Source of the DNA: Halanaerobiales bacterium
GTDB taxonomy: Bacteria; Bacillota; Halanaerobiia; Halanaerobiales; DTU029
Assembly: GCA_029981855.1 (NCBI GenBank)
Contig: JARRCS010000019.1
Span: forward strand, 1 to 43,316
Direction of reading: 5' to 3'
Length of the DNA: 43,316 nt
Within the stretch, counting starts at the first letter, position 1; every line of letters starts with the position of its first letter. Positions 327 through 1,357 of the stretch are shown piece after piece. The position numbers were made by a program, and so were the translations under genes. The notes beneath the pieces are model-generated. The model saw only the letters and a list, made by a program, of their open reading frames with translations. It was not told the DNA's origin and did no database searches.

Positions 327-980
327 CTAAAGGTCAAACTCAACCCTGACTACCTTACCAATTATCTTTATATCCTTCTTATCCACAACAAGTGGCTCAT
401 AATCACCGTTGTCGGGCTGTAGAATTACCTGATTATCCCGGTAATATAACCTCCTGATCAGCTCCCGATTATCCCCTACCAGGCTAACAAGGGCTACAGT
501 ACCGTTTTCCACCTCTTTATCTTCCTTAACCAGGACCAGGTCACCACTACATATCCTGCTGCCTTTCATACTATCATCCTTTACTTTTAAATAGAAGTAG
601 GTGCCATCATCAAGACTATCCCTGTTCATTATCCGGTATCGGCCAGAACCCTCTTCTGATACTTCCATTTTGCGGTTATTAATACTATACAAAACCGGTA
701 CCTCCATCAAATCTCCGTCAAGCTGAATAAACCCCGAAGAAGAATTACTACTCTTCGCAGTATTTTGATAATCCCTGATTTCTGTTTTCCCCAGCAGAAA
801 ATCAGTAGAAACACCAAAAAATTCGGCCAGGAGAAGCAACTTATCTACAGGTGGTGTCCTTTCACCCCTCTCATACATGGCCAGGATAGAAAAGGACATA
901 TTTAATGCTTCTCCCATTTCCCGAAGTGTATAGTTTTTCACTCGTCTTAGCTTCCTCAGCTTTTTGCCCAATTCCTCCAT
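327..980 (-). CDS. XRE/Cro-CI-type repressor with S24 (LexA-like) C-terminal domain, probably not self-cleaving
   Basis: DNA-binding transcriptional repressor of 217 residues. Residues 1-66 form a Cro/CI helix-turn-helix (LREMGEALNMSFSILAMYER) and residues about 93-215 form an S24 peptidase fold. The start is placed at ATG 980 because AGGGGTG stands seven bases before it; an upstream GTG at 1001 has no such site. The nucleophile Ser137 (DDSMKG) is present. The position of the LexA catalytic Lys appears to be Arg176 (ELIRRL) and the usual Ala-Gly cleavage bond appears as Asn-Asn (SINNRK, 99-104). This suggests control by a ligand or partner protein rather than RecA-triggered cleavage. GTGCA repeats in the upstream region are likely operators for itself and for the divergent Spo0E-like gene. 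Confidence 0.88.
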   Translation of the reverse strand: MEELGKKLRKLRRVKNYTLREMGEALNMSFSILAMYERGERTPPVDKLLLLAEFFGVSTDFLLGKTEIRDYQNTAKSSNSSSGFIQLDGDLMEVPVLYSINNRKMEVSEEGSGRYRIMNRDSLDDGTYFYLKVKDDSMKGSRICSGDLVLVKEDKEVENGTVALVSLVGDNRELIRRLYYRDNQVILQPDNGDYEPLVVDKKDIKIIGKVVRVEFDL

Positions 981-994
981 CTTGACACCCCTAG

Positions 995-1141
995 TTTGCA
1001 CTATAGGTTAATTGTAGCATATTAAGGTCAGCAGTCGTGTATCCAAATAGTGCAAAAATGAGGGTGTGCTATTTTCAGGAAGAATATGGGGAATAATTTA
1101 AGGAGATCAAAAATAATATTTGTGTGCACTTATTGTGCAAT
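995..1141. promoter_or_regulatory. Candidate operator array (repeated GTGCA/TGCAC sites) between repressor and Spo0E-like gene
   Basis: TTTGCACTA at 995-1003 is the exact reverse complement of TAGTGCAAA at 1048-1056. Further GTGCA/TGCAC cores occur in the stretch 1121-1141 (TGTGTGCACT and ATTGTGCAATT). The spacing and inverted arrangement suit a dimeric Cro/CI-type repressor. The site at 995-1003 lies just upstream of the repressor start, and the one at about 1133-1138 overlaps the -35 box of the divergent promoter. Confidence 0.55.
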
Positions 1142-1161
1142 TCTACAAATTAATATATAAT
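1133..1161 (+). promoter_or_regulatory. Sigma-A-type promoter for the Spo0E-like gene
   Basis: TTGTGC at 1133-1138 and a perfect TATAAT at 1156-1161 are separated by 17 bases. The -35 element is embedded in a GTGCA operator-like site, so repressor binding would block polymerase. Confidence 0.6.
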
Positions 1162-1201
1162 ATTACTTATAATACAATAATTTATAGAATAGGGTGGCAA
1201 A

Positions 1202-1357
1202 ATGAAAGAAAATCACAAAAACAATTTACTTAAAACAATTGAAAAACTTCGTTATGAACTAAATAATCTGGGGAAAACAAAGAAATTAACTGAAAGGCAG
1301 CTGGTGCAAAAGAGTCAGCAACTGGATACATTATTAAATATGTATTATAGTTCTTAA
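1202..1357 (+). CDS. Spo0E-like aspartyl phosphatase (sporulation regulator), 51 residues
   Basis: Very small protein with the Spo0E family layout: a first helix (LLKTIEKLRYELNNL), a turn, and a second helix ending in KSQQLDTLLNMYY, which matches the family signature S-x-x-LD-x-LI. Family members dephosphorylate Spo0A~P and so delay sporulation. The start is well supported, with AGGGTGG at 1191-1197 five bases before ATG. It is transcribed divergently from the S24-type repressor behind a strong promoter with operator-like sites, which suggests the repressor controls it. It converges on the aldolase gene. The match rests on length and motif only; I could not run a profile search. Confidence 0.75.
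   Translation: MKENHKNNLLKTIEKLRYELNNLGKTKKLTERQLVQKSQQLDTLLNMYYSS

What the first reader, a model, noticed from the sequence alone, without database searches (positions are those of the whole stretch)
327..1357. Non-cleavable S24 repressor facing a Spo0E-like phosphatase: possible sporulation switch
The repressor keeps the Ser nucleophile but appears to have Arg for the catalytic Lys and Asn-Asn for the cleavage bond. The divergent promoter of the Spo0E-like gene has its -35 box inside one of several GTGCA operator-like sites. Inference: a repressor controlled by a ligand or anti-repressor sets Spo0E level and thereby Spo0A~P.
Basis: partly seen in the sequence, partly recalled or inferred. 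Interest (0 to 1): 0.6.

Follow-up and report, generated by a model that had tools for sequence, protein, structure and literature searches.

The report
Inactive LexA-like repressor guarding a Spo0E
A LexA-like repressor that appears to have lost its self-cutting machinery sits head-to-head with a small gene that probably removes phosphate from the sporulation master switch Spo0A, and the DNA sites through which it would control that gene are conserved in two related bacteria, one of which has a sensor kinase in place of the phosphatase.

Summary
The gene at 327-980(-) encodes a Cro/CI-type HTH plus LexA/S24 protein whose catalytic Lys is Arg. The scissile Ala-Gly aligns with Asn-Arg, not Asn-Asn. 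The gene at 1202-1357(+) is a true SpoOE-like protein (48 bits, SxxxD intact). The operator idea is well supported. Orthologues exist in Halothermothrix orenii (divergent Spo0E again; Ser also lost, to Asp) and in another genus of the window's family (divergent orphan PAS histidine kinase instead). In otherwise diverged intergenic DNA all three share CAAATAGTGCA (2/2000 shuffles) 52-59 bp upstream of the repressor start. Each also has a second copy of the 15-bp motif TGCAC-N5-GTGCA over the promoter of the divergent gene. In H. orenii each of two motif searches hits the genome only here. More widely, 11 of about 105 Spo0E loci in the class have an XRE-type regulator head-to-head. Best reading: an autoregulated, non-cleavable repressor that occludes the spo0E promoter and so tunes a Spo0A~P input. 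DNA binding is strongly inferred, the phosphatase step is inferred by family, the inducing signal is unknown. AloR control of spo0E in Paenibacillus is the closest precedent: a new variant of a known kind.

The parts
327..980 (-). HTH(XRE)-S24 repressor, 217 aa; Ser137 kept, Lys to Arg176, scissile Ala-Gly replaced by Asn102-Arg103
   Evidence: Pfam; alignments with LexA and the other S24 frames
1202..1357 (+). Spo0E-like putative Spo0A~P phosphatase, 51 aa, motif SQQLD
   Evidence: PF09388 48.2 bits vs cut-off 23; SxxxD invariant in 101 distinct sequences
1125..1139 (.). Operator O2, perfect dyad TGCAC-TTATT-GTGCA over the spo0E -35 box
   Evidence: only perfect match in the own genome; counterpart at the divergent promoter in H. 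orenii and G004
1040..1054 (.). Operator O1, TATCCAAATAGTGCA; 11-mer CAAATAGTGCA identical in three genera
   Evidence: 2 of 2000 shuffle sets share an 11-mer or longer
997..1011 (.). Weaker operator-like site O3, TGCACTATAGGTTAA, at the repressor leader
   Evidence: 11 of 15 to the consensus; not seen in the two relatives
1133..1161 (+). spo0E promoter: TTGTGC, 17 bp, TATAAT
   Evidence: sequence; the simple scanner does not list it because the -35 is weak

Best explanation
The pair is a small switch. The repressor, a CI/LexA-like protein (presumably a dimer) that probably cannot cut itself, binds TGCAC-N5-GTGCA dyads in the shared intergenic region. O2 covers the -35 box and would keep spo0E off; O1, 52-59 bp upstream of the repressor's start, would give autoregulation and perhaps cooperative or looped binding with O2 (85 bp apart). 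When a ligand, partner protein or proteolysis removes the repressor, Spo0E is made and drains phosphate from Spo0A~P, delaying entry into stationary-phase or sporulation programmes. Shown: gene identities, residue losses, conserved sites and geometry. Inferred: binding, direction of control, phosphatase activity. Unknown: the signal.
For: Divergent S24-Spo0E pair also in G012, whose 2,578,146-bp contig equals the published H. orenii chromosome (PMC2626281), a different family. The three orthologues share the HTH stretch SFS[IL]LAMYERGER, absent from every other frame in the loci checked. They share O1 CAAATAGTGCA 52-59 bp from the repressor start and O2 on the divergent promoter: in window and G004 a half-site is the -35 with a 17-bp spacer to TATAAT; in H. 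orenii O2 lies between TTGATA and TACAAT. In H. orenii each of the two motif searches gives one genomic site, both here. Autocleavage residues lost: S/R here, D/R in H. orenii; loss of Lys goes with loss of the scissile Gly in the set (3-4 of 13 keep Gly vs 21 of 23; Fisher 3e-4). Class-wide, 11 of about 105 Spo0E loci have a head-to-head XRE regulator and no HTH-XRE gene was found adjacent in another orientation, against 3 XRE hits in 400 kb of control DNA. One locus carries an XRE-Spo0E fusion (L155). Spo0A is present.
Against: No binding or expression data. In G004 the divergent gene is a histidine kinase, so Spo0E is not a fixed target. Lys to Arg alone may leave slow cleavage at high pH (memory of LexA mutant work, not checked). 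Only three orthologous loci exist to compare. O1 in the window is only a partial dyad (7 of 10 half-site positions).
Confidence: 0.68

Rival explanations
1. The repressor is a local activator or dual regulator of spo0E, as AloR is in Paenibacillus polymyxa, binding upstream at O1 and recruiting polymerase.
For: AloR positively controls the adjacent spo0E-like gene and peptide addition shuts it off (PMC7425212). O1 lies upstream of the spo0E promoter.
Against: O2 overlaps the -35 (window, G004) or sits between -35 and -10 (H. orenii), positions typical of occlusion. AloR is an HTH-TPR protein without S24.
Confidence: 0.1
2. The two proteins also act on each other directly: the regulator binds Spo0E protein, as RstA binds Spo0E in C. 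difficile, so the locus is a protein-protein switch as well as a transcriptional one.
For: Spo0E-RstA interaction in C. difficile (PMC11115286); an XRE-Spo0E fusion in L155.
Against: RstA binding was modelled on its TPR domain, absent here. G004 keeps the repressor with no Spo0E beside it.
Confidence: 0.12
3. A decayed prophage or mobile-element immunity region: the S24 gene is a former CI repressor, and spo0E is a passenger with no selected regulatory link.
For: CI/LexA-like architecture; the more distant G196 locus has S24, a Cro-like HTH and Spo0E in an immunity-like order; the contig begins just beyond the repressor gene, so one side is unseen.
Against: Repressor and operators are conserved across families while the intergenic DNA has diverged. 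Neighbours on the visible side are housekeeping genes. No Spo0E relative in 50,697 phage records and no Spo0E hit in 29 viral-contig loci.
Confidence: 0.1

Closest known systems
Alo13 locus of Paenibacillus polymyxa (AloR, AloP, Spo0E-like; PMC7425212)
   Same: A dedicated HTH regulator next to a spo0E-like gene directly controls its expression
   Different: AloR is an RRNPP HTH-TPR peptide receptor acting positively with spo0E downstream; here an S24 protein, divergent, no TPR, probably repressing
LexA / lambda CI / P22 C2 repressors (S24)
   Same: HTH plus S24 C-terminal domain; dyad operators in a divergent promoter region
   Different: Catalytic Lys and scissile Ala-Gly missing, Ser also missing in H. 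orenii; target is a putative Spo0A-pathway gene, not SOS or lytic genes
Gifsy repressors GfoR/GtgR (PMC3121763)
   Same: Non-cleavable repressors of CI type, relieved by anti-repressor proteins
   Different: Gifsy repressors lack the C-terminal domain altogether; here the domain is kept but apparently inactive. No anti-repressor identified here
C. difficile Spo0E-RstA-Spo0A switch (PMC11115286)
   Same: Spo0E functionally tied to an HTH regulator
   Different: Protein-protein contact with a TPR regulator, not shown to be promoter control

Membership tests
S24 autocleaving repressor (LexA/CI) | HTH plus S24 domain by sequence | tested here: met
   HTH_3 46.8 and Peptidase_S24 74.9 bits; LexA structures matched
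S24 autocleaving repressor (LexA/CI) | Ser nucleophile | tested here: met
   Ser137 present, but Asp in the H. orenii orthologue
S24 autocleaving repressor (LexA/CI) | Catalytic Lys | tested here: not met
   Arg176 in the Lys column, Arg in both orthologues
S24 autocleaving repressor (LexA/CI) | Cleavable Ala/Cys-Gly bond | tested here: not met
   Asn-Arg here; no Gly at the aligned place in the two orthologues
Spo0E-like phosphatase (PF09388) | Family score over the curated cut-off | tested here: met
   48.2 vs 23 bits
Spo0E-like phosphatase (PF09388) | SxxxD motif | tested here: met
   SQQLD; S and D in all 101 distinct sequences of the set
Spo0E-like phosphatase (PF09388) | Dephosphorylates Spo0A~P | not testable with these tools
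   needs biochemistry; Spo0A is present in the genome
Alo/RRNPP control of spo0E | HTH-TPR receptor with a propeptide gene | tested here: not met
   C-terminal domain is S24, no TPR hit; no propeptide gene was looked for beyond the ORF list

The most novel reading that the evidence does not exclude
A lineage of catalytically dead LexA/CI-like repressors has become a dedicated controller of Spo0A phosphorylation inputs, keeping its operators while the controlled gene is exchanged between a Spo0E phosphatase and a sensor kinase; it is one case of a class-wide habit in Halanaerobiia in which Spo0E genes carry private head-to-head XRE sensors (S24, PAS-HD, or XRE-Spo0E fusions).
Probability: 0.4. 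Interest if true: 0.65.

Novelty: new variant of a known kind. Interest (0 to 1): 0.55.

Why it matters
How anaerobic spore-formers without the Bacillus phosphorelay set Spo0A~P is poorly known, and Spo0E was studied in a clostridium only recently (PMC11115286). This locus gives a named repressor, a 15-bp operator and a short target gene, so transcriptional control of a Spo0E can be tested directly. The exchange of phosphatase for kinase behind the same operators suggests which kinases may feed the same pathway. It also shows a CI-like fold kept for regulation after losing self-cleavage.

Tried and rejected
Other motif matches in the own genome and G004 were looked at: an RsgA-like coding region (L222), a terminator-like hairpin in G004 (L214), coding regions (L221, L260, L261), and one upstream of a GntR-type gene that may be that gene's own operator (L259); so no convincing wider regulon. 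Phage, plasmid and viral-contig searches gave no S24-Spo0E pair. Spo0A presence does not track Spo0E presence (58 of 59 genomes have Spo0A, 31 have a Spo0E match), so co-occurrence gives no support. G196 first looked like a third direct pair, but a Cro-like gene lies between, so it is only an analogue.

Full report
Observation. The window is the whole of contig 15 of a 2.59 Mb genome of the order Halanaerobiales (order inferred from kinship with G012). The minus-strand gene starts at ATG 980, behind a GGGGTG ribosome site, and ends at 327. It is an XRE-type HTH followed by an S24 domain. The plus-strand gene at 1202-1357 encodes 51 residues over the SpoOE-like cut-off, with the SQQLD motif.

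Non-cleavability. Thirty-six HTH-S24 frames (the window's among them) plus one class LexA were aligned. The window keeps Ser137 but has Arg176 in the catalytic Lys column; the PDB alignment to M. tuberculosis LexA puts the same Arg on Lys. In the set 23 have Lys (counting LexA) and 11 have Arg. Of 23 Lys-bearing proteins 21 keep the scissile Gly; of 13 others 3-4 do (Fisher 3e-4 or less; counted by eye, relatedness not corrected). The orthologues go as far or further: G004 has S/R and H. orenii D/R. That features needed for cleavage decay together suggests that cleavage is not used.

Orthologues. Profile scores show a gap between the window (371 bits) and G012 (329), which are in the profile, and everything else (162 and lower) in a 398-genome sample; G004, 45% identical, was found earlier. 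G012 is a 2,578,146-bp single contig, the published size of Halothermothrix orenii (PMC2626281). There the repressor again faces a Spo0E gene. In G004 it faces a 399-residue PAS-HisKA-HATPase protein with no response regulator beside it in the 15 kb read.

Operators. The three intergenic regions (218, 231, 323 bp) share CAAATAGTGCA; 2 of 2000 dinucleotide-shuffled triples share a word of 11 or more. In addition the word lies 52-59 bp from the repressor start in each, and a second copy of the 15-bp dyad lies 84-108 bp further on, at the promoter of the divergent gene. In the window and G004 the half-site is the -35 box with a 17-bp spacer to TATAAT; in H. orenii the dyad sits between -35 and -10 (manual reading). 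The perfect dyad occurs once in the window's genome. In H. orenii the dyad search (one mismatch allowed) and the 11-mer search each give one site, both here. The conserved HTH stretch SFS[IL]LAMYERGER occurs only in these three repressors among the loci checked.

Wider pattern. Spo0E genes of the class (59 genomes, about 105 places) were collected with flanks. Eleven have an XRE-type regulator head-to-head; no HTH-XRE gene was found adjacent in another orientation, though one LexA lies convergent to a Spo0E and one XRE gene lies 3.6 kb away. Twenty control stretches (400 kb) hold 3 XRE hits. Assuming about one gene per kb (0.75% of genes), 11 of 105 has a binomial probability near 6e-10; with a 2% background and relatives collapsed to 8 it is still about 1e-3. 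The regulators differ: S24, short C-termini, a PAS-HD protein (L134), and one locus (L155) in which an XRE domain is fused to a borderline Spo0E domain (22.9 bits). This suggests recurrent recruitment of local one-component regulators to Spo0E genes.

Mechanism. The simplest model is promoter occlusion at O2 plus autoregulation through O1. Derepression would raise Spo0E and lower Spo0A~P. In G004 derepression would raise a kinase instead, so the physiological sign may differ between species, or the kinase may act as a phosphatase; this is open. The genome has Spo0A and a full-length SpoIVA, but a SpoIIID model found nothing, so spore formation is likely but not certain; H. orenii has spo0A but sporulation has not been observed (PMC2626281).

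Comparison. Direct control of a spo0E-like gene by a neighbouring HTH regulator is known for AloR13 (PMC7425212), and adjacency of RRNPP systems to spo0E in phages has been noted (PMC10075063). Repressors relieved without cleavage are known from Gifsy prophages (PMC3121763). No paper found in the held library describes an S24 repressor paired with Spo0E; most subscription papers are not in that library. Hence a new variant of a known kind.

Noticed in passing
L097 1761-1843; L077 1756-1838 and 2346-2428; L100 1379-1463; L133 1697-1779: c-di-GMP-I riboswitches lie about 110-140 bp upstream of four of the eight Spo0E genes in one related genome (G038), and a c-di-GMP-II riboswitch upstream of a Spo0E in another (G052): a possible direct c-di-GMP input to Spo0A~P. 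No paper on this was found.
   Followed up: partly
L155 1561-1956(-) and 2145-2555(+): Two divergent XRE proteins, one with a borderline C-terminal Spo0E domain (motif SKELD, 22.9 bits vs cut-off 23), the other with a similar SNQLD tail not recognised by Pfam.
   Followed up: partly
L134 1962-3113(+): An XRE-PAS-HD_5 protein faces a Spo0E gene in G001, a possible cyclic-nucleotide-related sensor of Spo0E.
   Followed up: partly
L263 6452-7767: In G196 an S24 repressor with Ala for Ser and Arg for Lys faces a Cro-like HTH gene followed by a SpoOE-like gene (28.9 bits), an immunity-region-like order.
   Followed up: partly
1-228: The contig begins inside an ORF without a Pfam match; its first 96 bases also occur at the end of another contig (C5), so the true left neighbour is unresolved.
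   Followed up: no
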